Below, piece by piece: positions 13,706 to 44,196 of a stretch of 47,105 nucleotides of DNA. The notes beneath the pieces are model-generated. The model had not been told where the DNA came from and searched no databases. It saw nothing but the letters and a program-made list of their open reading frames with translations. Numbering within the stretch: the stretch's first letter is position 1; every line of letters begins with the position of its first letter. Made by a program: the position numbers and the translations under genes. The stretch is from Clostridia bacterium (GTDB lineage: Bacteria; Bacillota; Clostridia; Christensenellales; Aristaeellaceae). The DNA lies in NCBI GenBank assembly GCA_017404985.1, contig JAFRBK010000012.1:1-47105 (forward strand), in the 5' to 3' direction.

Positions 13706-14422
13706 ATGAGTGAAAAAATGATTCTTTCCGATTCCCCGGAAAAGCAGAAGGCGTATGAAGCCTATATGAAAACCACCCATACCCTGGGCCGCCTGGTGTC
13801 GGTCGTCACACTGGCCCTGCTGGTGGGCGCGCCCTTTGTGATTGGCTCCGTGCTCGGTGCCATGCCGGACCTTGGCGCAGCCGGCCGCGGGTTTTTGTCC
13901 GTAGGCCTGGTGTGGACTGTGTCCAGCGTGGTGGAATACCTGGTCTATACGCCCATGCTCGGCGCCGGCGGCAGCTATCTGGCCTTCATCACCGGCAACC
14001 TGATCAACATGAAAATCCCCTGCGCCATGAATGCCCGGGAACTGGTGGACGCCAAATCCGGCACCCCGGAGAATGAGGTGATTTCCACCCTGTCCATTGC
14101 GGCGTCATCCCTGGTGACCATTGTGGTGCTGGCCGTCGGCGTCGCCCTGTTGATCCCCCTGCGGCCGGTGCTGGAAAGCCCGGAGCTCCAGCCCGCCTTT
14201 GCCAATGTGGTGCCGGCCCTCTTCGGCGCCATGGCCTATAAGTATTTCCGCAAGGACCTGCGCCTGGCGCTGATTCCCTTTGCTGCCATGGCCATCCTGT
14301 TCATGTTCGTCCCCTCCCTGACCTCTTCCACCAGCTTCATGATTATTCCGGCCGGTGCTCTGGCCATTGGGCTGGCCTGGATAAAGTACCGCCGGAACCG
14401 GAAGGGAGAGACAAAGGCGTGA
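13706..14422 (+). CDS. Integral membrane protein, partner of the DUF5058 protein
   Basis: The 238-aa product has a short cytoplasmic-type N-terminus and then about six hydrophobic segments, ending in a basic RRNRKGETKA tail. I do not recognise a named family with certainty. A well-defined motif is SSVVEYLVYTPMLGAGGSYL, followed by FITGNLINMKIPCAMNA, a pattern suggesting a re-entrant or substrate-lining region. AAGGAGGAA precedes the ATG. The gene ends in GTGA, so the next gene's GTG start overlaps the TGA stop and translation is coupled. By position it would be the second subunit of a transporter with the DUF5058 protein. Confidence 0.7.
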   Translation: MSEKMILSDSPEKQKAYEAYMKTTHTLGRLVSVVTLALLVGAPFVIGSVLGAMPDLGAAGRGFLSVGLVWTVSSVVEYLVYTPMLGAGGSYLAFITGNLINMKIPCAMNARELVDAKSGTPENEVISTLSIAASSLVTIVVLAVGVALLIPLRPVLESPELQPAFANVVPALFGAMAYKYFRKDLRLALIPFAAMAILFMFVPSLTSSTSFMIIPAGALAIGLAWIKYRRNRKGETKA

Positions 14423-15861
14423 CAATCCTGACCATCATCGGCTGCCTGCTGGGGGCCGTGCTGCTGCTTCTGCTGGCTTCCCTGGTTCATACACTTTCCA
14501 TTCCCGCCAGGAAATCTTCCTATAAACCATCCCCGGATCCGGAGCGGGCCATGGCCTATGCCCGGAAGCTGTCCAGGATGGTGCAGGCAGAAACGGTTTC
14601 CCGGCCGGACACCGTGGACCTGGAAAAGTTCCTGGCCTTCCACAGGGTGCTGGAGGAGCTCTTCCCCCTGGTGCACCGGAAACTGGAAAAGATCGAGATC
14701 GGCGGAAGCCTGCTTTATCACTGGAAGGGCCAATCTAGCACGCGGCCCCTGGTGCTCATGAGCCATCAGGATGTGGTGCCCGCCGAGGGCGAATGGGAAT
14801 TTCCTCCCTTCTCCGGAGAAATCACAGACGGCAAAGTCTGGGGCCGGGGTGCGTCGGATACCAAGTGCTCGGTCATGGCCTTCTTTCAGGCCGTGGAGGA
14901 ACTGCTGGCGGAAGGGTTCATTCCCCCGAACGATGTCTGGCTCTCCTCCTCCTGCACGGAGGAAACCGGCGGGGACGGCTGCACGAAACTGGTAGAGGAA
15001 CTGAAGCGCCGGGGCGTGAAGCCCTGGCTGGTCTGCGACGAGGGCGGCGGCATCATCCGGGAACCTATCGGCGGCATTCACGGAAACTTTGCGATGCTCG
15101 GGGTATTTGAGAAGGGCACTGCGGAAGTCCGCTTCACGGCCTCCGGCGACGGCGGCCACGCCAGCGCGCCAAAAGCGGGTTCCCCGATTCCCCGGCTGGC
15201 GGACTTTGTGCACGAGGCGGAGCATCGGCGGATCTTCCGGCGAAAGATGCCGAAGGAAGTCGCCGCAATGTTTGAAACGCTGGCGCCCTATGCCTCCTTC
15301 CCGCTCCGATGGGTATTCACGAACCTCTGGCTGTTCCGGCCCCTGCTTTTGCAGGTTCTCCCCGCGATTTCCGCCCAGGCCGGCGCGATGATCCGGACGA
15401 CGGCAGCCTTCACGATGCAAACCGGTTCCGAAGCCTATAACATGATGCCCCAGTCAGCCACGGTCACCGCCAACCTCCGGTTCATTCCCCACCAGGGGAT
15501 GAAGGAAAGCCTGGCAGTTTTGGAAAAGCTGGCCCGAAAGCACGGCGTGGAAATGGAATTCCTGCGGGGGAATGACTATACGGCGCCGACGGATATCAGC
15601 GGAGAACCCTTCCGGCTGGTGCAGGCAATGGTGGAAAAAACCTTCCCCGGCTGCCCCGGCTGCCCCTACGTGATGACCGGGGCGTCCGATTCGAGGTTCT
15701 ACCAGCCGATCTGTGACAGCGTGGTCCGCTTCGCGCCGGTCATCTACGGGCCGGAACAGATGAAGGGCATGCACGGTCTGAATGAAAACATTGAAATCGA
15801 CTGCCTTCCCGGCGCCGTTGATTTCTACCGGAACCTGATTGCCGCCGTTCCGAAAAGCTGA
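14419..15861 (+). CDS. Membrane-anchored M20 family metallopeptidase (carboxypeptidase or deacylase type)
   Basis: The product is 480 aa and starts with GTG overlapping the stop of the upstream gene. An N-terminal transmembrane helix (TILTIIGCLLGAVLLLLLAS) is followed by an M20 domain like those of the Gly-X carboxypeptidase group. Zinc and catalytic motifs are visible: LMSHQDVVP, GRGASDTKCSVMAF and the general-base pair in SSCTEETGGDG. Further conserved sites are the lid-domain GDGGHASAP and ASDSRFYQ near the C-terminus. It would hydrolyse a dipeptide or N-acyl amino acid, on the side of the membrane set by the anchor. Coupling with two membrane proteins suggests that the released amino acid or peptide is a transported substrate. 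Confidence 0.88.
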   Translation: MTILTIIGCLLGAVLLLLLASLVHTLSIPARKSSYKPSPDPERAMAYARKLSRMVQAETVSRPDTVDLEKFLAFHRVLEELFPLVHRKLEKIEIGGSLLYHWKGQSSTRPLVLMSHQDVVPAEGEWEFPPFSGEITDGKVWGRGASDTKCSVMAFFQAVEELLAEGFIPPNDVWLSSSCTEETGGDGCTKLVEELKRRGVKPWLVCDEGGGIIREPIGGIHGNFAMLGVFEKGTAEVRFTASGDGGHASAPKAGSPIPRLADFVHEAEHRRIFRRKMPKEVAAMFETLAPYASFPLRWVFTNLWLFRPLLLQVLPAISAQAGAMIRTTAAFTMQTGSEAYNMMPQSATVTANLRFIPHQGMKESLAVLEKLARKHGVEMEFLRGNDYTAPTDISGEPFRLVQAMVEKTFPGCPGCPYVMTGASDSRFYQPICDSVVRFAPVIYGPEQMKGMHGLNENIEIDCLPGAVDFYRNLIAAVPKS

Positions 15862-28633: not shown

Positions 28634-28650
28634 TATATCGCGCTGTCCGT

Positions 28651-28770
28651 TTCTTCTCTCATCCAGACTGTAACTGTCGGCTTCGGATTTTCACCGAATC
28701 GGCCGGATCGCAGAGATCCGGTTCGCGGGCTGTACCGCCGGTAGGGAATTGCACCCGTCCCCGAAGAAGC
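28651..28770 (-). promoter_or_regulatory. FMN riboswitch (RFN element)
   Basis: On the minus strand the conserved aptamer blocks appear in order: CTTCGGGG, CGGGTGCAATTCCC, ACCGGCGGTA, AGCCCGCGA, GATTCGGTGAAAATCCGA, AGCCGACAGT and GGATGAGAGAAG. FMN binding would shut off ribU expression. Confidence 0.95.
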
Positions 28771-28799
28771 TTCCAGTGGGTTTGCGTGATTTCTCGATT

Positions 28800-33033: not shown

Positions 33034-34041
33034 TTATTGCTGAACCACGTAAATTACCTGGGGAGTCGGTTCCGCTGCCGGCGGTTCCGGCGTCACATAG
33101 ACGATAATCGGCGTGGGGGTCGGCTGGGCGCTTCTGGTCACATAGACCACTTCCGGCGTCGGTTCCGCCTGCGCTTCAACAATCGGGGCAATCTCCGCGT
33201 GCAGCAGGTCGCCGCGGATATATCCCATGATTCCGTTCAGAAGCTTCACGGCATACCAGATTTCTCCGGAGCTGTTCAGTACTTCCTCTGTAATCTCAAC
33301 CAGGGTTCCGGCCTGGCGGATAACTGCTACCCGGGTGCTGTAGATGCTGGCCGAAGCACGTACATTGACCTTGTTTTTCAAGGTATATCCTTCGCCAACC
33401 ACCGGTGTGGTCCGGACAATCGTTTCCGTCTTAACAACAACCACCTTGGTCTTCGGAACCGGGACAGGAACCGGCCAGGGCCATCCTGTTCCGGCAGCTG
33501 CTCCCGCACCTGCCGCTGCACCTGCTCCTGCCGCTGCGCCCGCTCCCGCGCCTGCGCCGCTGCCGGAAGCAGCTCCCGCAGCTGCTGCGCTCGCTGCAGC
33601 GCTGGAAGAAGCTCCGGTTCCGCCGCTGCCCGCAGACGCTCCGGCCCCCGCAGCTGCAGCACCTGCGCCCGCGCCGCTGCCGGATCCTGATCCGGAACCG
33701 GTCGCAGCGGAGGTAGATGTAGTCGTCACGGTCACAGACGTGCTGGTGCTGGACCCGCTCCCCGCTGCTGCGGAAGCCGCGGCTCCCGCAGCAGCCGCGC
33801 CCGCTCCCGCACCGCCTCCAGCGCCGGAACCGGAACCCGAAGCCCCGCTGGTCGAGCTGGTGGATGTTGTGACGGACACGGAAGTACTGGTGCTGCTGGT
33901 GCTCCCAGCGGAGGCTTCCGCTTCCGCGGCGGCAGCAGCAGCGCCTGCACCTGCGCCGCTTTCCGGATCCGCAAACCCGGTGGTGCACAGGCTCAGGATC
34001 ATCAGGCTGATCAGAATCAGCGTTAATGCGTTTCTCTTCAT
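33034..34041 (-). CDS. Secreted silk-like Gly/Ala/Ser-rich protein with SH3 domain
   Basis: The ATG at 34041 follows GGGAGAGAA and opens a signal peptide (MKRNALTLILISLMILSLC, cut near GFA/DPE). Upstream in-frame codons overlap the promoter. The product is 335 aa. Residues 28-184 are almost only Gly, Ala, Ser and Thr. Two Ser/Thr/Val blocks (47-65, 96-112) alternate with silk-fibroin-like GAGAGAAAAG runs. A Pro/Val hinge (WPWPVPVPVP) follows. An SH3_3 domain lies at about 222-284 (VNVRASASIYSTRVAV, MGYIRGDLLHAE). The C-terminus has three Pro-Thr/Val-Tyr-Val repeats. The SH3 domain suggests cell-wall binding; the rest may be an elastic or glycosylated spacer. Function unknown. Confidence 0.8.
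   Translation of the reverse strand: MKRNALTLILISLMILSLCTTGFADPESGAGAGAAAAAAEAEASAGSTSSTSTSVSVTTSTSSTSGASGSGSGAGGGAGAGAAAAGAAASAAAGSGSSTSTSVTVTTTSTSAATGSGSGSGSGAGAGAAAAGAGASAGSGGTGASSSAAASAAAAGAASGSGAGAGAGAAAGAGAAAGAGAAAGTGWPWPVPVPVPKTKVVVVKTETIVRTTPVVGEGYTLKNKVNVRASASIYSTRVAVIRQAGTLVEITEEVLNSSGEIWYAVKLLNGIMGYIRGDLLHAEIAPIVEAQAEPTPEVVYVTRSAQPTPTPIIVYVTPEPPAAEPTPQVIYVVQQ
33490..33960 (-). repeat. Low-complexity Gly/Ala/Ser coding repeats
   Basis: Encodes residues 28-184 of the silk-like protein. The block pattern is Ser/Thr-rich then Gly/Ala-rich, present twice, with near-repeats STSTSVSVTT and STSTSVTVTT. Codon use is varied within the Gly and Ala runs, so the protein pattern is conserved beyond simple nucleotide slippage. 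Confidence 0.75.
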
Positions 34042-34148
34042 GGTGCGTTCTCTCCCTGTTTTTTCGGTCACTGAGCGGCCCGGAACCGAGCCGTACCGGG
34101 ATTCAACAACGGTATAATCCCCCAGAGGGATCTTCTGCGACAATCTGA

Positions 34149-35788: not shown

Positions 35789-37471
35789 TTACTGGATTAA
35801 TCTTGTATTTTCACTGTCCATAAAGTCGACCCGGGATCGGATCCATTTTTTCAGATAGGCCACCGCGTTGTCAAAGCTGCCGCCGGCCCGCTTCGCTGCC
35901 TGATCATTGGTGCCCCAGCGTTCAAAGTTCATTTCCGCGGAACTGCGGATGGCCTCGGCGTATTCGTCCAGGCTTATCAGCACATGGCTTTCCCCGCCCC
36001 GGTCTCCGTTTTCTTCCCCCAGCAGAATCGCTGCCGCCGGGCGGAAGCGCGTGTTCCAGAGTTCCTGCGCTTTCTGCGTAAACGCCTCATGCGTGGTCAG
36101 CAGCCAGTTCAGGTTCCCCGGGCGTCGGCTTTGGGAGGTCATATAGTTTCCCTCTGCCTGAATGCCCCGCTCTTCCATATTGCCGAAGCACAGGTCATAA
36201 TCCCAGGCCGGCCCGGCATAGATCAGCGGGTCCGTTTCGTCTGAGTCTTTATACATGTACTGGCTTCCGCCGAGGAAGTCAAAATTCTTGCACCATTCCT
36301 CCAGCAGGTATTTCAGGGCAAAAGATTCCAGATCGATGTATTCCCGGAAATCCTTGCCTGTTTCTTCGCTGATCCCGTCTTTTGAAATCAGGGCCCTGTG
36401 CAGGTCCGCCACCCGTTCCGCCAGGTATTTCACCTCCGCCTCCCCCGGGCAGGTGGGTTCCACAATGCGGATGCAGAGCCTTCCCTCCGTTTCGAATCCA
36501 GGTTTGCTCGTGTATCCGAAGCGGTGCAGTTTCTCGATTTTAAAAATGTATCCGCCGGTCACGTCCTCCGGTTCGGAGGGAAGCCGGTATCCCCGGATTT
36601 CTTTCAGCCCGCCCCAGGTTTGTTTGAATTTCTTATAGGTATTCAGTTCCTCCGGATTCAGTTTCTCCGTTTCTTTCTCCAGATTCCGGATAGCGATCCG
36701 ATTCTTCTTAATCTGGACCTTCTCCGTCATCAGGTACAGCCCTTGGTATTCCCCGTTGATCCACAGGTCCGTCTGCACGCATTTAACCGCAAAGGGCAGG
36801 CCGATTTCCCGGGCCGTATCCAGCACAATCTGGTTTCGCAGCAGGCTGATATCCGCATAGTTGGCCAGCAGCACCCAGGTTTTCCCCGCCGGAATGCCCG
36901 CCACGGAAACCGCATCCGGAAGCTTCAGCTCATATGGTTTCTTGGAATAGGCAAAAGTGCTGTTGCCCCTGCCTTTCAGCTGGCTCAGCAGCCCCCGGTA
37001 TGCCACGGTACCGTCTGCCTCCGTCAGCAATGCCTGTCCTTCTGTGATCACGTTTTCCTTGCTCTTGTTGACAGCCTTCATTTCCTTTGCGTCCACCGTC
37101 AGGCACAGGGACAGCACCAGGGATCCCTGCATCAGCTGAAGCTGGGCCAGCCGCTTGCCTTTTGCATCGGCCACCTGGATCCGCCTGCCCGCAAACCGGC
37201 TCAGGTCCACTTCCTCCCCCGCCGAAACAGCGGCCTTTTCATCACCCAGATACAGGATGTCCTGCCCCGGCATCGAAAGGATGGCACGGCTCAGGTCCCG
37301 GTTTCCGGGCACACAGAGCAGGCTGTCATTTCCTTTCTTTCGGCTCAGAAAAAGCGTCTCCGGATCATCGGCAAAAGCCAGGGACAGGGTAGTGTCTGCA
37401 GCAGCTGCTGCGCATTGAAAGCAAAGGAGCAGCAGTGCCGCCAGCACTGCCGCCGCGATATGTCTGGTCAT
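35789..37471 (-). CDS. Secreted CotH family kinase-like protein
   Basis: The 560-aa product starts with a signal peptide (MTRHIAAAVLAALLLLCFQC, AAAAAD). It has a bacterial Ig-like N-terminal portion, then a CotH domain from about residue 155. Signature stretches are KGRGNSTFAYSKKPYELKL, the NYADISLLRNQIV segment, INGEYQGLYLMTEK, and the metal-binding AWDYDLCFGN. CotH proteins are atypical protein kinases. In Bacillus, CotH phosphorylates coat proteins, but secreted homologues also occur outside sporulation loci. Its ATG overlaps the stop of the ABC ATPase gene (ATGA), so it is translationally coupled to the transporter. No spore gene is seen nearby. The substrate is unknown; neighbouring exported proteins are possible. 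Confidence 0.88.
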   Translation of the reverse strand: MTRHIAAAVLAALLLLCFQCAAAAADTTLSLAFADDPETLFLSRKKGNDSLLCVPGNRDLSRAILSMPGQDILYLGDEKAAVSAGEEVDLSRFAGRRIQVADAKGKRLAQLQLMQGSLVLSLCLTVDAKEMKAVNKSKENVITEGQALLTEADGTVAYRGLLSQLKGRGNSTFAYSKKPYELKLPDAVSVAGIPAGKTWVLLANYADISLLRNQIVLDTAREIGLPFAVKCVQTDLWINGEYQGLYLMTEKVQIKKNRIAIRNLEKETEKLNPEELNTYKKFKQTWGGLKEIRGYRLPSEPEDVTGGYIFKIEKLHRFGYTSKPGFETEGRLCIRIVEPTCPGEAEVKYLAERVADLHRALISKDGISEETGKDFREYIDLESFALKYLLEEWCKNFDFLGGSQYMYKDSDETDPLIYAGPAWDYDLCFGNMEERGIQAEGNYMTSQSRRPGNLNWLLTTHEAFTQKAQELWNTRFRPAAAILLGEENGDRGGESHVLISLDEYAEAIRSSAEMNFERWGTNDQAAKRAGGSFDNAVAYLKKWIRSRVDFMDSENTRLIQ

Positions 37472-38214
37472 TGTCTGGCCTCCCGGATGGCGCGGATAAA
37501 ATCCCGGCTCCGTTCTTCCCGGGGCGCTTCGAAAAAGGCTTTTGACGGTCCGGTTTCTACCACACGGCCATCCGCCATGAACAGGACCTTTCCGGATACA
37601 TTCCGCGCAAAATCCATCTCATGGGTCACAACCAGCATGGTCATCCCGCTTTCCGCCAGGCTCCGCATTACCGCCAGCACCTCGCCGATCAGTTCCGGGT
37701 CCAGCGCGCTGGTGGGCTCGTCAAAATAGATGATCTCCGGCCGGGTTGCCAGCGCCCGGGCAATGGCCACCCGCTGCTGCTGGCCGCCGGACAGTTGGAT
37801 CGGGTAAGCCTCCAGTTTATTCGCCATGCCAACTTTCTGCAGGGCTTCCAGCGCGATCTGTTCCGCCTCTTCCTTCTTCATCCCGGCCCCGGCAGTCAGC
37901 CCCAGGGTTACGTTCTGAAGCACAGTTTTATTCAGGAACAGGTTGAAATTCTGGAATACAAAGGCGGTCTTCTTCCGGATCCGGGCAATATCCCGTTTCG
38001 TGGCGTTATGCAGGTTGATTTTTTCCCCGTCAAACACCATGGTTCCGGTATCCGCCCGCTCCAGAAAGTTCAGGCAGCGCAGGAAAGTCGTTTTTCCGGA
38101 TCCGCTTGGGCCCAGAATCGCGACCACATCTCCCTTTTCCACATCCAGGTCGATGTCGTCCAGCACCAGCTGGTCGTTGAAAGATTTCCGGACACCGCGA
38201 ACTTCCAGCATCAT
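37468..38214 (-). CDS. Amino acid (cystine-type) ABC transporter ATP-binding protein
   Basis: The 248-aa product is a polar amino acid ABC ATPase. It has Walker A GPSGSGKT at 35-42, the signature LSGGQQQR, Walker B IIYFDEPTSALDP, and the switch histidine in VVTHEMDFA. Its ATG overlaps the permease stop (ATGA) behind GGAGGTG. It powers uptake with the permease upstream, and its stop overlaps the CotH start downstream. The substrate is inferred from the binding protein, most like cystine. Confidence 0.94.
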   Translation of the reverse strand: MMLEVRGVRKSFNDQLVLDDIDLDVEKGDVVAILGPSGSGKTTFLRCLNFLERADTGTMVFDGEKINLHNATKRDIARIRKKTAFVFQNFNLFLNKTVLQNVTLGLTAGAGMKKEEAEQIALEALQKVGMANKLEAYPIQLSGGQQQRVAIARALATRPEIIYFDEPTSALDPELIGEVLAVMRSLAESGMTMLVVTHEMDFARNVSGKVLFMADGRVVETGPSKAFFEAPREERSRDFIRAIREARQ

Positions 38215-38888
38215 GAGCGGACACCTCCGTAGGACGCCAGCCGTTTTTCTCCCCTGTGCTGAATCCAGGTCAGTACGGTACAGAAAATCAGGTAAATCAC
38301 AGCAACTTCCACATACAGTCCCAGGGACTCATATACCCGGCCGTTAATCACCTGGGCCTGGCGGAACATCTCCATGACAGTAATGGTCGCCGCCATGCTG
38401 GTTTCCTTCAGCATGGAGATCATGGAATTGCTCAGGGCCGGAAAAGCGGTCCGGAGCGCCTGTGGCAGCACCACATGCACCATGATCTTCGTCCAGCTCA
38501 TGCCAACGCAGTAGCCGGCTTCCAGCTGGCCCTTGCTGACGCTTTCCAGGGTTCCGCGGATTGTCTCCGCCATGTATGCCGCCTCATTCAGGCCCAGCAC
38601 CACGACTGCCGCAGGAAATGCATCCAAAAAGATCCCCACACTGGGCAGCCCGTAGAACGCAATATACAGTTGCACCAACAGCGGCGTTCCGCGGGTGATC
38701 CAGATATAGAAGCGGCACAGCTGCTTCAGCACCGGAACCCTGGCATACTGAATCAGGGCAACAATCAGGGCCGTCACCAGCGCCAGGGCAAAGGAAAGCA
38801 CTGTCAGGGGAATCGTCACCTTGACGCCGTATTCCAGCAATTTGGGGAAGGAATCCACCAGGATATTCCAGAGCCGTTCGTTTATCAT
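38211..38888 (-). CDS. Amino acid (cystine-type) ABC transporter permease
   Basis: The ATG at 38888 follows AAGGA by 9 bases; the longer frame has no ribosome site. The 225-aa product is a HisM/TcyB-type permease with about five membrane helices. The EAA loop reads EAGYCVGMSWTKIMVHVVLP and couples to the ATPase. An early NEAAYMAETIRGTLESV segment is typical of this family. A hairpin at 38914-38940 separates it from the binding-protein gene and probably lowers its level relative to that gene. Confidence 0.93.
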   Translation of the reverse strand: MINERLWNILVDSFPKLLEYGVKVTIPLTVLSFALALVTALIVALIQYARVPVLKQLCRFYIWITRGTPLLVQLYIAFYGLPSVGIFLDAFPAAVVVLGLNEAAYMAETIRGTLESVSKGQLEAGYCVGMSWTKIMVHVVLPQALRTAFPALSNSMISMLKETSMAATITVMEMFRQAQVINGRVYESLGLYVEVAVIYLIFCTVLTWIQHRGEKRLASYGGVRS

Positions 38889-38913
38889 CGTTTTGTTCCT
38901 TGAATTCATCCGA

Positions 38914-38940
38914 AGGCACAGGGAATGGCTCCCTGTGCCT
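38914..38940 (-). other. Intercistronic hairpin between binding protein and permease genes
   Basis: A perfect 11-bp stem AGGCACAGGGA/TCCCTGTGCCT with a 5-base loop and no T tract. Such hairpins commonly protect the upstream binding-protein message from 3' decay. Confidence 0.6.
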
Positions 38941-38978
38941 CCATTGGTTTTTCCGTCAGGCAATCCCGCCGCTTCGCC

Positions 38979-39767
38979 TTATTCGGCTTTCGTCAGGTCT
39001 TCGCCGAAGTATTTGATGCTCAGTGCTTCCAGCGTCCCGTCCTCCCGTGCCTTCGCCAGCACGTCGTTGATCGCAGCCACGAGGGATTCCGTCTTTTCCG
39101 TCTTCCGGACAGGGTAGGCCACTGCTTCGCCCGGGAACTCCAGCGCCACCTTGATGTTGGCTTCCGGGTGTTCCTTCAGGTAGTCGTCAATGGATCCCTT
39201 GGCGTTGATCGTTGCGTCCGCCCGGCCGTTTTCGACCATGGACAGAGTTTCGCCCAGGGTATCCACATACTGGACGTCAGCGCCTCTTTCCTCCGCCATC
39301 ATCGCATAGGTGGAGTTGGGGGAATTCGTGGTTTTCTTACCTTTCAGGTCATCGAGGGTTTTGATGTCCTCGTTGTCCTTCCGAACAACCAGCACGGCGG
39401 TCGTATAGGCATAGGGATCGGAAAACGCATATTTTTCCGCCCGGACCGGGGTAAACCCGACGCCGTTGCAGATAATGTCGAAGCGCCCGGTTTCCACGCC
39501 GGCCAGCAGGGATTCCCAGGCTGCTTCCTTGAAGTCCGGCTTCACGCCGAGGCCTTCCGCGATCAGCGTGCCGATCTCAACATCAAAGCCGGTCAGCGTA
39601 TCGGATTCATCGTGGTAGGTCCAGGGGCTCCAGTTTCCCTCTGTGCCAATCACCAGCGTTCCTCTTTCCCTGATTTCCGCCAGGGCATCCTTCTCCCCTT
39701 CCGCAAGGGCCAGGGCAGCGGTAGCGGCCAGCAGCAGGGCCAGCAGCAGGGCAATCCATTTCTTCAT
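38979..39767 (-). CDS. Amino acid ABC transporter binding protein, cystine-like
   Basis: The 262-aa product is a family 3 solute-binding protein with a signal peptide (MKKWIALLLALLLAATAALA) and no cysteine at all, so no lipoprotein anchor. The core reads RGTLVIGTEGNWSPWTY, GFDVEIGTLIAEGLGV, YAFSDPYAYTTAVLVV, and the end EDGTLEALSIKYFGEDLTK. These match TcyA/FliY-type cystine-binding proteins more than glutamine or arginine types. Substrate is inference from this resemblance and from the thioredoxin neighbours. AAGGAGGA precedes the ATG, 34 bases after the MarR gene. Confidence 0.87.
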   Translation of the reverse strand: MKKWIALLLALLLAATAALALAEGEKDALAEIRERGTLVIGTEGNWSPWTYHDESDTLTGFDVEIGTLIAEGLGVKPDFKEAAWESLLAGVETGRFDIICNGVGFTPVRAEKYAFSDPYAYTTAVLVVRKDNEDIKTLDDLKGKKTTNSPNSTYAMMAEERGADVQYVDTLGETLSMVENGRADATINAKGSIDDYLKEHPEANIKVALEFPGEAVAYPVRKTEKTESLVAAINDVLAKAREDGTLEALSIKYFGEDLTKAE

Positions 39768-39801
39768 AATGATAATCCTCCTTCATTTTTCACCTGGAGG
39801 C

Positions 39802-40266
39802 TTAATCCGCCTCCATGGCGTTCAGCAGTTTATACAGGAGCGTATAGAGCTGCAGAGCATCCTCGTACGGCAGGGTAATGCACTCCCCCACTTTCATGGG
39901 AATATCCTTCACCTGCTCCCGCAGCGCCCATCCGTTTTCGGTCACGGATACATAAACTACACGCTCATCCACCTTGCACCGGCAGCGGGCTACCCATCCG
40001 CTTTCCTCCATTTTTTTCAAAAGCGGCGTCAGGGTTCCGCAGTCCAGATACAGTTTTCGGCACAGGTCGCCGACCGTCGCCTTTCCCATTTCCCACATCG
40101 CCAGGCAGACAATATACTGGGTATAAGTCAGTCCAAGGGGCTTCAGCAGAGGGGTATACGCATTCACCACACGCCGCGCCGCGGCATACAGCGGAAAACA
40201 CACCTGCCCCTCCAGCATCAGCTGCGGATACGGATTCTCCGGTTCCTTCCGTTCCTGTTCACTCAT
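39802..40266 (-). CDS. OhrR-like MarR family redox-sensing repressor
   Basis: The 154-aa product is a winged-helix MarR protein of the OhrR subgroup. The redox cysteine is present at Cys23 in EGQVCFPLYAAARR. The conserved LGLTYTQYIVCLAMWE, LYLDCGTLTPLLKKMEESGW and DERVVYVSVTENG wing follow. In OhrR, oxidation of this Cys by organic peroxides releases DNA. Two further cysteines (WVARCRCKVDE) could give a disulphide. It lies 18 bases after trxA and 34 before the cystine-type binding protein gene. It may repress this operon through the inverted repeat at 41517-41563; that is inference. Confidence 0.9.
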   Translation of the reverse strand: MSEQERKEPENPYPQLMLEGQVCFPLYAAARRVVNAYTPLLKPLGLTYTQYIVCLAMWEMGKATVGDLCRKLYLDCGTLTPLLKKMEESGWVARCRCKVDERVVYVSVTENGWALREQVKDIPMKVGECITLPYEDALQLYTLLYKLLNAMEAD

Positions 40267-40284
40267 GGTTCTTCCCCTTCTGAT

Positions 40285-40599
40285 TCAGCAATGAGATTCA
40301 ATCCAGCTCTTCAGGGCCGGGCCGGGCTTGAAGCCAACGGAAATATCGGCCACCTTTCCGTTCTTCAGGATGATTACTGTCGGAACCGAGCTGATGCCGA
40401 ACCCGGCTGCCAGGGAACCGGCTTCATCCACGTCCACATTGTAGAACTTTGCCTTGTCGGCTAGCTGCTCGGACACTTCCTCAATCACCGGTGCCAGCAT
40501 GCGGCATGGCCCACACCAGGTAGCGGAAAAGTCAATTACCGCGGCCGCGTCCTTCTGTGCCTCGTTCAAAAATTCCTGTTCGTTGATCTTCTTAACCAT
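40285..40599 (-). CDS. trxA: Thioredoxin
   Basis: The 104-aa product is a classic thioredoxin with the active site ATWCGPCR (Cys29, Cys32) and the cis-proline loop SSVPTVIIL. It reduces protein disulphides in the cytoplasm with electrons from the adjacent reductase, whose gene ends 24 bases upstream. AGAGGAAAAG precedes the ATG. An extra C-terminal Cys (SHC) is present. Confidence 0.95.
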   Translation of the reverse strand: MVKKINEQEFLNEAQKDAAAVIDFSATWCGPCRMLAPVIEEVSEQLADKAKFYNVDVDEAGSLAAGFGISSVPTVIILKNGKVADISVGFKPGPALKSWIESHC

Positions 40600-40622
40600 T
40601 TTTCTTTTCCTCCATTCGTTTT

Positions 40623-41486
40623 TTACGCTTTTTTCTGGTCCAGATAAACCGCGGCACTGATGGCCGCCACATTGCCCTCGCCCGCCGCTTTTGCATACTG
40701 GTATGGGGTTCCGGTAATGTCTCCGCAGGCATAGACCCCCGGCAGGCTCGTCTCCATCTTCCGGTTCACCGCCACATGGGCGCCTTCGGTTTCCAGTCCG
40801 GGAACCAGCTGTCCGGGGGCCACAGCCTCCCGCAGGATGAACACCCCGTCAGCGGCGTATTCTCCGCTTTCCGTGGCTGCTTTCCGGAGGTTTCCGTCCT
40901 GCGACAGGCCGGTCACCTTTTCGCGGACCACCGTCACGTTTTCCGGCAGGTTCGTCTCCCCGGTATACATCGGGAAATAGATAACTGTCCGGCAGGCGCT
41001 TGCCAGAAAGGCGGCTTCCGGCTCCTCCCGGGGGCTGTAGCCGATCACAAGGACGTCCTTCCCCCGATACAAAGGAGCGTCGCAGGTAGCGCAGTAGCTC
41101 ACGCCCCGGCCCAGCAGTGCCTCTTCCCCCGGCAGGGGTTTGGCCTGCACGACGCCGGTCGCCAGGATCACCGTCCTGGCCTCGATCATGTCCTCCCCGG
41201 CCTGCAGGGCAAAATAATCCCCCATGGCATAAACCGCGCCGATCCGGGTCTCTGTGATCTCGATCTCCGCCTCCGCCAAATGGCGCTGGAATGCTTCCGC
41301 CAGTTCCGTCCCGCTGACAAACCCCGTCCCCGGATAATTCCGGATCTCATGGGCCTTTCCGATCTTTTCGCTCAGCTGCCGGCTGCCGAAAAGCAGGAAG
41401 CTTTTCCCCCGGTTTTTGGCTGTCAGCGCCGCGGAAATCCCCGCCGGCCCTGTTCCGATAATCGCGATGTCGACCCGTTCCACCAT
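40623..41486 (-). CDS. Ferredoxin-type flavin thioredoxin reductase (FFTR-like)
   Basis: The ATG at 41486 follows GGGGGA; upstream codons overlap the promoter. The 287-aa product has the thioredoxin reductase fold: FAD motif IIGTGPAGISAAL, redox pair Cys132/Cys135 in YCATCDAPLY, and C-terminal GDITGTPYQYAKAAGEGN. The NADPH-binding GGGDSA-type motif is replaced by IGYSPREEPEAAF, and the HRR 2'-phosphate site by YFPMYTGE. This is the pattern of clostridial pyridine-nucleotide-independent reductases that take electrons from reduced ferredoxin. NADPH use is therefore unlikely. It is the first gene of the redox-cystine-CotH operon. Confidence 0.9.
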   Translation of the reverse strand: MVERVDIAIIGTGPAGISAALTAKNRGKSFLLFGSRQLSEKIGKAHEIRNYPGTGFVSGTELAEAFQRHLAEAEIEITETRIGAVYAMGDYFALQAGEDMIEARTVILATGVVQAKPLPGEEALLGRGVSYCATCDAPLYRGKDVLVIGYSPREEPEAAFLASACRTVIYFPMYTGETNLPENVTVVREKVTGLSQDGNLRKAATESGEYAADGVFILREAVAPGQLVPGLETEGAHVAVNRKMETSLPGVYACGDITGTPYQYAKAAGEGNVAAISAAVYLDQKKA

Positions 41487-41516: not shown

Positions 41517-41563
41517 ATATTTTATCAAAGATTTCAGAGTTGTCAATCCCTTTGATAAAATAT
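41517..41563 (-). promoter_or_regulatory. Promoter of the redox operon inside a perfect 14-bp inverted repeat
   Basis: Arms ATATTTTATCAAAG (41517-41530) and CTTTGATAAAATAT (41550-41563) are exact reverse complements with a 19-base spacer. The promoter lies within: TTGACA (41541-41546), 16-base spacer, TAAAAT (41519-41524) on the minus strand. The right arm also extends into an AT palindrome (ATAAAATATTTTAT). The layout fits repressor occlusion, most simply by the operon's own MarR protein. Confidence 0.7.
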
Positions 41564-42412: not shown

Positions 42413-42445
42413 ACTCCCGGGAGAATTCTTCCGGGAGTTTCTTTT
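42413..42445 (+). terminator. Terminator of the HAD gene
   Basis: An 8-bp stem ACTCCCGG/CCGGGAGT with a 10-base loop is followed by TTCTTTTA. It abuts the convergent DUF4037 gene. Confidence 0.8.
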
Positions 42446-43385
42446 ATTCAGCAGCCAGAATATGCAAGTTCCGGATTTCATTGTCACGGATCCCGTCATT
42501 GACGGAATATGCATGCTTTTCTAGATCGCCGCAGACTGCTTCCGTCAGTCCCTGCTCTTGCAGCGCGTCAATGATTTCCGAGGCAATGCCCTCGATCGCA
42601 AAGGCCTTTTCCTCCGCCAGGCTGCCCTCGTTCCCCGTGGTAATCAGCCATTCCAGGCTTCTGCCCAGGTCCTCTCCGCCCGGCAAATCCTGCAGGGCCC
42701 GGAAAGACCATTTGTAGTATGGCATATAAACCCGGTTTAGCAGGAACACCGCCGCCAGAGTATGCTTCACGAACTCGCCCGCTGCCAGCTGGGCCGCCCC
42801 GCTCTCTCCGTGGCTCAAGCAGCGGCGGTAGTTATACTGCCCGCTTTGGGCCATCAGCAGCAGATGCCCTGCCAACCGTTTCCGGCGGATATCCTCCGGC
42901 ATCTTTTTCAGGATGCTCCTGGCATCCGTCAGCAGCCCCGGATCGTCCCGGAACACCTCGCCATTCACCGCCTCCGCCAGCGCATAGTCCGGCAGCCGCA
43001 GCCACCTTTCCGCCGTCAGTTCCTCCGGCAGGCAGCCGATTTTCTCCCGGAAATAGTCGTCAATCCGGAACACCCCGTGCCGTGCCCCGCCGACGGGGTT
43101 GATTTTCTGTCTGGTAAAGCCCTGAAACTCAGCCGGTAGCTTGGCATAGGCTCGTTCCAGCTGAAATGCGGTCCGCCGGTCCACGATGTCCTCCCCCGGC
43201 AGAAACAGGCAGAAACCCGGCTCAAAGTCATGGTCCCGGGAAATCTCATCGTCAAAACCGTAGCACTCGGATCCGCTGCCTGTCAGCGCTGCGGCGATAA
43301 TTTCCTCGTATTCCGGAAACTGTTCATGGATCATCGGTATCCCGCAGGCTTCATAATAGGCCCGGCTCAGTTCAATCCCTTTCAT
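42444..43385 (-). CDS. DUF4037 nucleotidyltransferase-like protein
   Basis: The 313-aa product has an N-terminal nucleotidyltransferase-like core with GSGSECYGFDDEISRDHDFE, in which the G-S and D-x-D pattern mark the metal site. A DUF4037-type helical C-terminal region follows (YNYRRCLSHGESGAAQLAAG, YMPYYKWSFRALQDLP). The reaction and target are unknown. Its start (GGAGGAAATCC then ATG) lies inside the TPR gene, with a 14-base overlap. The three-gene minus unit 44339-42444 is tightly coupled. Confidence 0.85.
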   Translation of the reverse strand: MKGIELSRAYYEACGIPMIHEQFPEYEEIIAAALTGSGSECYGFDDEISRDHDFEPGFCLFLPGEDIVDRRTAFQLERAYAKLPAEFQGFTRQKINPVGGARHGVFRIDDYFREKIGCLPEELTAERWLRLPDYALAEAVNGEVFRDDPGLLTDARSILKKMPEDIRRKRLAGHLLLMAQSGQYNYRRCLSHGESGAAQLAAGEFVKHTLAAVFLLNRVYMPYYKWSFRALQDLPGGEDLGRSLEWLITTGNEGSLAEEKAFAIEGIASEIIDALQEQGLTEAVCGDLEKHAYSVNDGIRDNEIRNLHILAAE

Positions 43386-44196
43386 GGATTTCCTCCGCGC
43401 GTTTGTTCAGTTCTGCTTCCTTCAGGAAATACCCATAGTGCCCGAAAACCGGCGCACATTTTTCGCATACAAAAGCATAGTATCCGTTCCGGGGCAGGCT
43501 CGCCGTATCCAGCAGCGCCGCCGCCCGGTCCAGGTATTCTTCCACTTCGCCTTCCGCTGCTTCCGCGCCGCGTTCCGCCTCCAGGGCGTCCGCCATATTC
43601 AGCCAGGTAATCGCCTGTTCCAGCTCCCCATGCTCCTGATGCTCCATCACGTCCAGCGCCAGCCGGAACATCCTGCCGGCCTCGGCGTATTCCCCGACTG
43701 CAGTAAGTGCCAGCGCCATATTGTTATACAGCCCGCCCAGGCGGCTGTCCGTCCGGTCCAGGTTTTTTTCATAGTTTGCCCGTGCCTTTTCAAAGCAGCG
43801 GAGCCCCGCCGCCGGATCCCCGAAGGCTTCCCGTACGGTGCCGGCATTAACCCACGTGGTTCCCGCGGTTACTGTATCCTCCATGCCCAGGGATTCCACC
43901 AGGGCCATAGCTTTTCCGGCATGGTGCAGGGCTTTCTCCCGGTCTCCTTGTTTCCGGTAAAAGCCCATCAATTCATTGTTCAGCATCAGCTGTCCCCGGC
44001 CGTCGCGGTTCTGCTCCGCTTCTGTCATCCAGTACAACAGATGGCGCTCCGCGGCGGTCCAGTCGCTTTTGTCCTCGTACTGCCGCAGTTTGTCCAGAAT
44101 CCGCCCAACAGGCACCGGTTCCGCCGGCTGTTCCTCCCCGGGCTTTCCGCACAGCACGCAGTTCGGCTCAATATAATCTTCTTTTTCCAGTTTCAT
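43372..44196 (-). CDS. Tetratricopeptide repeat protein with Cys motifs
   Basis: The 274-aa product is mostly TPR helices (about residues 55-225, for example ALALTAVGEYAEAGRMFRLA). An N-terminal CVLCGKP and a C-terminal CEKCAP could together bind zinc. It overlaps the DUF4037 gene by 14 bases. Its own ATG overlaps the TGA of the small upstream gene in ATGA, with GGAAGGAG just upstream. TPR proteins mediate protein contacts, so it may present substrates to the nucleotidyltransferase-like protein. That pairing recurs in Firmicutes, but the role is inference. Confidence 0.83.
   Translation of the reverse strand: MKLEKEDYIEPNCVLCGKPGEEQPAEPVPVGRILDKLRQYEDKSDWTAAERHLLYWMTEAEQNRDGRGQLMLNNELMGFYRKQGDREKALHHAGKAMALVESLGMEDTVTAGTTWVNAGTVREAFGDPAAGLRCFEKARANYEKNLDRTDSRLGGLYNNMALALTAVGEYAEAGRMFRLALDVMEHQEHGELEQAITWLNMADALEAERGAEAAEGEVEEYLDRAAALLDTASLPRNGYYAFVCEKCAPVFGHYGYFLKEAELNKRAEEIHERD

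What the first reader, a model, noticed from the sequence alone, without database searches (positions are those of the whole stretch)
35789..41486. Redox-cystine-CotH operon: FFTR, thioredoxin, OhrR, cystine-type ABC transporter and a secreted kinase
Seven minus-strand genes run with short gaps or ATGA overlaps and no strong internal terminator. Disulphide reduction from ferredoxin, peroxide sensing and cystine import form a coherent thiol-homeostasis unit, where imported cystine would be reduced by the thioredoxin pair. The coupled CotH kinase is unexpected and may link redox state to surface protein modification. I know of no described system with this set.
Basis: partly seen in the sequence, partly recalled or inferred. 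Interest (0 to 1): 0.7.

Follow-up and report, generated by a model that had tools for sequence, protein, structure and literature searches.

The report
Peroxide-sensor operon with ferredoxin-driven thioredoxin
A gut-type anaerobe carries what looks like one switchable gene block in which a peroxide sensor controls a thioredoxin repair pair probably powered by ferredoxin, with an amino-acid-type importer and a secreted kinase added downstream in one bacterial group.

Summary
The seven genes are real and in the stated order. Relatives show layers. The recurrent core is GPx-FFTR-Trx-OhrR: peroxidase, ferredoxin-type thioredoxin reductase, thioredoxin, peroxide sensor. The window's operon lacks the peroxidase gene; an unlinked copy exists. 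I found a candidate operator, palindrome ATATTTGATCAAATAT, at the promoter of the first gene: present (3 or fewer mismatches) before 36 of 90 first genes and 3 of 14 OhrR genes in loci without FFTR, but at 0 of 252 other junctions. The transporter and CotH kinase are additions of one clade: SBP follows OhrR in 16 of 21 close and 0 of 32 more distant loci; all seven genes stand together in 8 of 80. CotH sits 22-23 nt behind OhrR at two loci without the transporter, so co-transcription is plausible. 'Cystine' is only partly supported: two cystine-receptor pocket residues are invariant, but the Asp that holds the alpha-amine is Ala in 27 of 34 sequences, the window's included. Verdict: a coherent peroxide-response operon, new variant of a known kind; importer substrate and kinase role open.

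The parts
41548..41563 (-). upstream operator-like copy ATATTTTATCAAAGGG, just upstream of the -35
   Evidence: 4 mismatches to ATATTTGATCAAATAT, 31 nt upstream of the second copy; the same spacing of 31 in L004, L006, L011, L017, L018, L022
41517..41532 (-). operator-like copy ATCTTTGATAAAATAT overlapping the -10
   Evidence: 2 mismatches to the palindrome; with the other copy a 47-nt inverted repeat
41519..41546 (-). promoter-like TTGACA-16-TAAAAT
   Evidence: 11 of 12 consensus positions; TTGAC[A/C/T] stands 10-40 nt upstream of a box in 46 of 49 boxed leaders, out of 91 leaders
40623..41486 (-). ferredoxin-dependent-type flavin thioredoxin reductase (FFTR), 287 aa
   Evidence: best PDB matches 6gnc, 6gna, 6gnd, E 2.6e-83 to 1.8e-81, next 2.2e-36; CATC active site, NADPH motif in 0 of 91 aligned
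40285..40599 (-). thioredoxin, 104 aa, WCGPC
   Evidence: TIGR01068 above cut-off
39802..40266 (-). OhrR-type MarR regulator, 154 aa
   Evidence: PDB 1z91 B. subtilis OhrR E 1.5e-31; Cys23 83 of 83, Cys129 73 of 83
38979..39767 (-). family-3 solute-binding protein, cystine-receptor-like, 262 aa
38914..38940 (-). intercistronic hairpin AGGCACAGGGA..TCCCTGTGCCT without T tract on the coding strand
38211..38903 (-). ABC permease (polar amino acid type), 230 aa
   Evidence: TIGR01726 above cut-off; best equivalog 'cystine ABC transporter permease' 209.7 bits versus cut-off 300
37468..38214 (-). ABC ATPase, 248 aa
   Evidence: best equivalog TcyN 298.8 bits versus cut-off 406
35789..37471 (-). secreted CotH-type kinase, 560 aa
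35754..35783 (-). promoter-like site TTGACA-18-TAGAAT before glutamate dehydrogenase: probable boundary of the operon

Best explanation
The block is an OhrR-type peroxide-response operon. OhrR binds a palindromic operator (ATATTTGATCAAATAT family) at the promoter of the first gene and represses the operon (inferred). Peroxide oxidises OhrR Cys23 and releases it (inferred from OhrR of B. subtilis and Xanthomonas). Reduced ferredoxin feeds FFTR, FFTR reduces Trx, and Trx reduces thiol targets, in relatives the GPx-type peroxidase encoded first in the operon, here perhaps the unlinked GPx (inferred). In one clade the operon was extended downstream by an amino-acid-type ABC importer and a secreted CotH kinase, which read-through from the same promoter would make peroxide-inducible (inferred from gaps, overlaps and the lack of other promoters or boxes). 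The importer most likely brings in a cystine-like sulphur compound for reduction by Trx, but its ligand pocket is atypical.
For: Gene order and overlaps. FFTR identity. OhrR Cys23 invariant, 83 of 83. GPx directly upstream of FFTR in 33 of 74 loci with 700 or more nt upstream, Trx downstream in 67 of 74, OhrR downstream in 48 of 64. Of the 14 hand-chosen OhrR loci without FFTR, 8 have a GPx within 200 nt and 11 within 1.2 kb. Box at 36 of 90 first genes and 3 of 14 OhrR genes in loci without FFTR (6 of 14 at 4 mismatches), 0 of 252 other junctions. TTGAC[A/C/T] 10-40 nt upstream of a box in 46 of 49 boxed leaders. No OsmC/Ohr match in the window's genome, so OhrR probably has another target. 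SBP follows OhrR in 16 of 21 close loci. CotH lies 22-23 nt behind OhrR in L008 and L127 and 28 nt behind Trx in L024, loci without the transporter.
Against: 54 of 90 first-gene leaders lack the box at 3 mismatches. OhrR binding to the box is not shown. The final consensus was read, which holds the same leaders that one search counts; only the 24 of 40 GPx-first leaders found with the earlier pattern are out of sample. GPx is absent from the window's operon, and one search lists no box near the unlinked copy. SBP lacks the alpha-amine Asp. Homologous transporters occur unlinked to FFTR in other genomes of the family, so the link is facultative. No expression data.
Confidence: 0.7

Rival explanations
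1. Only FFTR-Trx-OhrR is an OhrR-controlled operon; the transporter, CotH and glutamate dehydrogenase are syntenic neighbours kept together by short evolutionary distance, with promoters that the simple scan misses.
For: The transporter is linked only in close relatives (16 of 21 versus 0 of 32); in eight relatives a TPR-DUF4037-HAD block stands where CotH is; glutamate dehydrogenase is also conserved there and has its own promoter-like site.
Against: OhrR-SBP gaps are 85 nt or less in 16 of 17 loci (one of them with a miscalled start) and 166 in one; ATPase-CotH overlaps by 4 nt in five loci counting the window; OhrR-CotH is 22-23 nt at two loci without the transporter; no minus-strand promoter-like site inside.
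Confidence: 0.25
2. The importer takes up an N-blocked or peptide-bound substrate rather than free cystine. Glu43 would hold a distal amine, Arg109 the carboxylate, and the missing Asp would reflect an amide nitrogen at the alpha position; an M20 hydrolase releases the amino acid in some relatives.
For: Ala189 in 27, Ser in 3, Asp in 4 of 34 sequences, at the place of FliY Asp-192; M20 hydrolase between SBP and permease in 6 of 16 hand-chosen loci where the SBP is not with FFTR; its best solved relative is aminoacylase-1.
Against: The four sequences that keep Asp (L007, L010, L014, L016) are all FFTR-linked, so the pocket is not uniform in this operon; 0 of 17 loci with both SBP and FFTR have the M20 gene; the closest receptor by sequence and fold is the L-cystine receptor 2yln; the own-genome M20 relative is only 34% identical.
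Confidence: 0.25
3. OhrR here senses disulphide, polysulphide or electrophile stress rather than organic peroxide, and the operon is a general thiol-repair and sulphur-import unit.
For: No Ohr in the genome; a second Cys at position 129 in 73 of 83; a transporter of cystine-receptor type in the operon.
Against: The gene most often linked besides Trx and OhrR is a GPx-type peroxidase.
Confidence: 0.25

Closest known systems
Clostridial FFTR (PDB 6gna-6gnd) and the C. difficile trxA1-trxB1 operon (PMC10880999, passages seen)
   Same: FFTR without NADPH motifs in an operon with its thioredoxin, tied to stress response
   Different: The passages name sigma factors and a 'still uncharacterized regulator'; OhrR, glutathione peroxidase and cystine have 0 occurrences in its main text
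OhrR of Bacillus subtilis / Xanthomonas (1z91, 2pex, 2pfb)
   Same: MarR-family sensor with N-terminal Cys; palindromic AT-rich operator at its promoter (operator recalled)
   Different: No Ohr gene found in the window's genome; the sensor sits in an FFTR/Trx operon, with GPx in relatives
L-cystine receptor of Neisseria gonorrhoeae (2yln) and YecSC-FliY (PMC7170509, passages seen)
   Same: Closest SBP by sequence and fold; cystine Glu and carboxylate Arg kept
   Different: Asp-192 equivalent is Ala; all three subunits under NCBIfam cystine cut-offs
CotH spore-coat kinase (5jd9, 5jda; PMC7821199, one passage seen)
   Different: An N-terminal beta-strand region of about 90 residues and a signal-like helix; not in a spore-coat locus

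Membership tests
FFTR (ferredoxin-dependent flavin thioredoxin reductase) | CxxC active site and flavoprotein fold | tested here: met
   CATC: both Cys 91 of 91; Pyr_redox_2
FFTR (ferredoxin-dependent flavin thioredoxin reductase) | NAD(P)H-binding motif missing | tested here: met
   0 of 91 with GxGxx[AGS] in the region
FFTR (ferredoxin-dependent flavin thioredoxin reductase) | Reduction by ferredoxin | not testable with these tools
   needs enzymology
OhrR | N-terminal reactive Cys and Tyr residues | tested here: met
   Cys23, Tyr27, Tyr37, Tyr48, Tyr51 each 83 of 83; Cys23 aligns with Cys in 2pfb and with Ser in the 1z91 and 2pex chains
OhrR | Controls an Ohr (OsmC family) gene | tested here: inconclusive
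   No PF02566 match in the window's genome (85% complete); 12 of 14 control genomes match
OhrR | Binds a palindromic operator at the promoter of its own operon | tested here: inconclusive
   A palindromic box stands before 36 of 90 first genes and at 0 of 252 other junctions; binding not shown
Cystine ABC transporter (TcyJLN type) | NCBIfam equivalog cut-offs | tested here: not met
   SBP 154.4 of 312, permease 209.7 of 300, ATPase 298.8 of 406 bits
Cystine ABC transporter (TcyJLN type) | Glu holding the cystine amine (FliY Glu-48) and Arg holding the carboxylate | tested here: met
   Glu43 and Arg109 34 of 34; role from PMC7170509
Cystine ABC transporter (TcyJLN type) | Asp holding the alpha-amine (FliY Asp-192) | tested here: not met
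   Ala in the window; Ala 27, Asp 4, Ser 3 of 34
CotH kinase | CotH fold | tested here: met
CotH kinase | Catalytic-site Asp positions (NFD and WD) | tested here: met
   12 of 12; D228Q called inactive in B. subtilis CotH; which Asp is D228 and D251 is recalled and read from the weak alignment
CotH kinase | Kinase activity on a surface protein | not testable with these tools
   needs a bench test

The most novel reading that the evidence does not exclude
An OhrR regulon in rumen and gut Clostridia joins three layers under one peroxide switch: a ferredoxin-powered Trx (in relatives also GPx) detoxification chain, an importer for an N-blocked or peptide-bound sulphur amino acid with an altered cystine pocket, and an extracellular CotH kinase that modifies the cell surface under oxidant stress.
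Probability: 0.17. Interest if true: 0.65.

Novelty: new variant of a known kind. Interest (0 to 1): 0.45.

Why it matters
FFTRs of anaerobes have little known regulation: a passage of PMC10880999 speaks of a still uncharacterized common regulator for C. difficile trx genes. Here many related FFTR operons carry a candidate regulator gene and a concrete 16-bp candidate operator that can be tested by gel shift. It also predicts a ferredoxin-driven peroxidase chain in strict anaerobes and a cystine-type receptor with a changed ligand anchor.

Tried and rejected
Rejected or weakened: cystine substrate as settled (pocket Asp lost); the SBP-permease hairpin as a terminator (no T tract on the coding strand); the contig-40 box as a proven second target (seven places at 2 or fewer mismatches against four for the reversed-pattern control; only contig 40 and the operon have 0 or 1). 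The contig-40 site lies upstream of a 1.4-kaa repeat protein and is only a lead. A box search upstream of 17 SBP copies not following OhrR found none. On re-checking, the four sequences that keep the Asp turned out to be FFTR-linked; I lowered the N-blocked rival from 0.30 to 0.25 and the novel case from 0.20 to 0.17 for that.

Led nowhere: paper searches for OhrR with GPx and TrxR in anaerobes, FFTR with GPx, CotH in rumen Clostridia, OhrR in Clostridia, MarR-controlled FFTR, and M20 with cystine transport showed no title or abstract start that describes this set (search listings only). That is a statement about the held open-access library, not about all print.

L001 and WIN were left out; L001 and L002 out. 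Start codons in the scripts are those of the longest ORF, so some gaps are negative or misplaced.

Full report
Observation. The seven genes exist as stated. FFTR (41486-40623), Trx, an OhrR-type MarR regulator, SBP, permease, ATPase and CotH follow one another on the minus strand with gaps of 23, 18, 34 and 75 nt and two 4-nt overlaps. A promoter-like TTGACA-16-TAAAAT stands at 41546-41519. The scan lists no further minus-strand site until one inside the 3' end of CotH (35874) and a second good one (TTGACA-18-TAGAAT, 35783-35754) before the glutamate dehydrogenase. That gene is the likely start of the next unit.

Identity of the redox genes. The reductase matches the solved chains 6gnc, 6gna and 6gnd at E 2.6e-83 to 1.8e-81 against 2.2e-36 for the next thioredoxin reductase; that these are clostridial FFTRs is recalled. 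Both active-site Cys are invariant and none of 91 aligned sequences has a GxGxxA-type NADPH motif. Ferredoxin as donor is inferred from the family. The regulator matches B. subtilis OhrR; Cys23 is invariant in 83 of 83 and Cys129 present in 73 of 83. The window's genome, 85% complete, has no OsmC/Ohr match although 12 of 14 control genomes do.

What the core is in relatives. In the 80 loci kept with FFTR (168 relatives were found, the best 80 kept), Trx follows FFTR in 67 of 74 with enough downstream sequence, OhrR follows in 48 of 64, and a GPx-family gene (one member checked: PF00255) stands just before FFTR in 33 of 74. Of 14 hand-chosen OhrR loci without FFTR, 8 have a GPx within 200 nt and 11 within 1.2 kb; 3 have none. 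So the recurrent module is GPx-FFTR-Trx-OhrR. The window's operon has no GPx; a GPx gene lies unlinked on contig 13 of the same genome. L004 and L005 carry GPx in front of the full set.

Operator. The promoter is wrapped by a 47-nt inverted repeat. Its arms are two copies of a near-palindrome. A degenerate pattern taken from the window and FFTR-first relatives was then found, at 3 or fewer mismatches, in 24 of 40 GPx-first leaders, which had not been used to derive it. With the palindrome ATATTTGATCAAATAT, read from that output, 22 of 40 GPx-first and 14 of 50 FFTR-first leaders hold a site with 3 or fewer mismatches. So do 3 of 14 OhrR genes in loci without FFTR (6 of 14 at 4). No site was found at 252 other junctions: OhrR with FFTR 68, FFTR behind GPx 40, permease 30, DUF4037 20, TPR 20, GDH 19, SBP not following OhrR 17, SBP following OhrR 16, CotH 11, GPx without FFTR 11. 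The HAD gene, divergent from FFTR in many loci and then sharing its leader, has it in 5 of 18. Among 91 leaders, 49 hold a box at 4 or fewer mismatches, 26 hold two, and 46 have TTGAC[A/C/T] 10-40 nt upstream of a box. About half of the leaders lack it. That OhrR is the binder is an inference from co-occurrence, including the OhrR copies without FFTR.

Conclusion. The finding is a coherent peroxide-type response operon with a testable operator and two clade-specific downstream additions. Its parts are known families; the combination and an OhrR control of FFTR were not seen in the listings of the searches named.

Noticed in passing
window 28647-28772 (-): FMN riboswitch, 114.1 bits.
   Followed up: no
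window 33034-34143 (-): Secreted-looking Ala/Gly/Ser-rich low-complexity protein with an SH3_3 domain.
   Followed up: partly
window 42444-44196 (-): Overlapping TPR and DUF4037 gene pair, next to this operon in many relatives and behind the ATPase in eight of them.
   Followed up: partly
window 14419-15861 (+): M20 family hydrolase, 34% identical to the hydrolase found beside some unlinked copies of the SBP in relatives.
   Followed up: partly
L090 6159-6174 (G000 contig 40): The only perfect match to the degenerate operator pattern in the genome, upstream of a 1.4-kaa beta-helix/LRR repeat protein.
   Followed up: partly
window 38979-39767 and SBP relatives: Signal peptides that I read by eye end without an obvious lipobox Cys, unusual for a binding protein of a one-membrane bacterium (expectation recalled).
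   Followed up: no
L149 6719-8919 region (-): A different polar-amino-acid transporter (ATPase 51%, permease 30%, SBP 28% identical) lies directly before an OhrR gene, a possible second pairing of OhrR with an importer.
   Followed up: no
L028: Permease and ATPase follow OhrR but the SBP lies on the other strand a few kb away.
   Followed up: no
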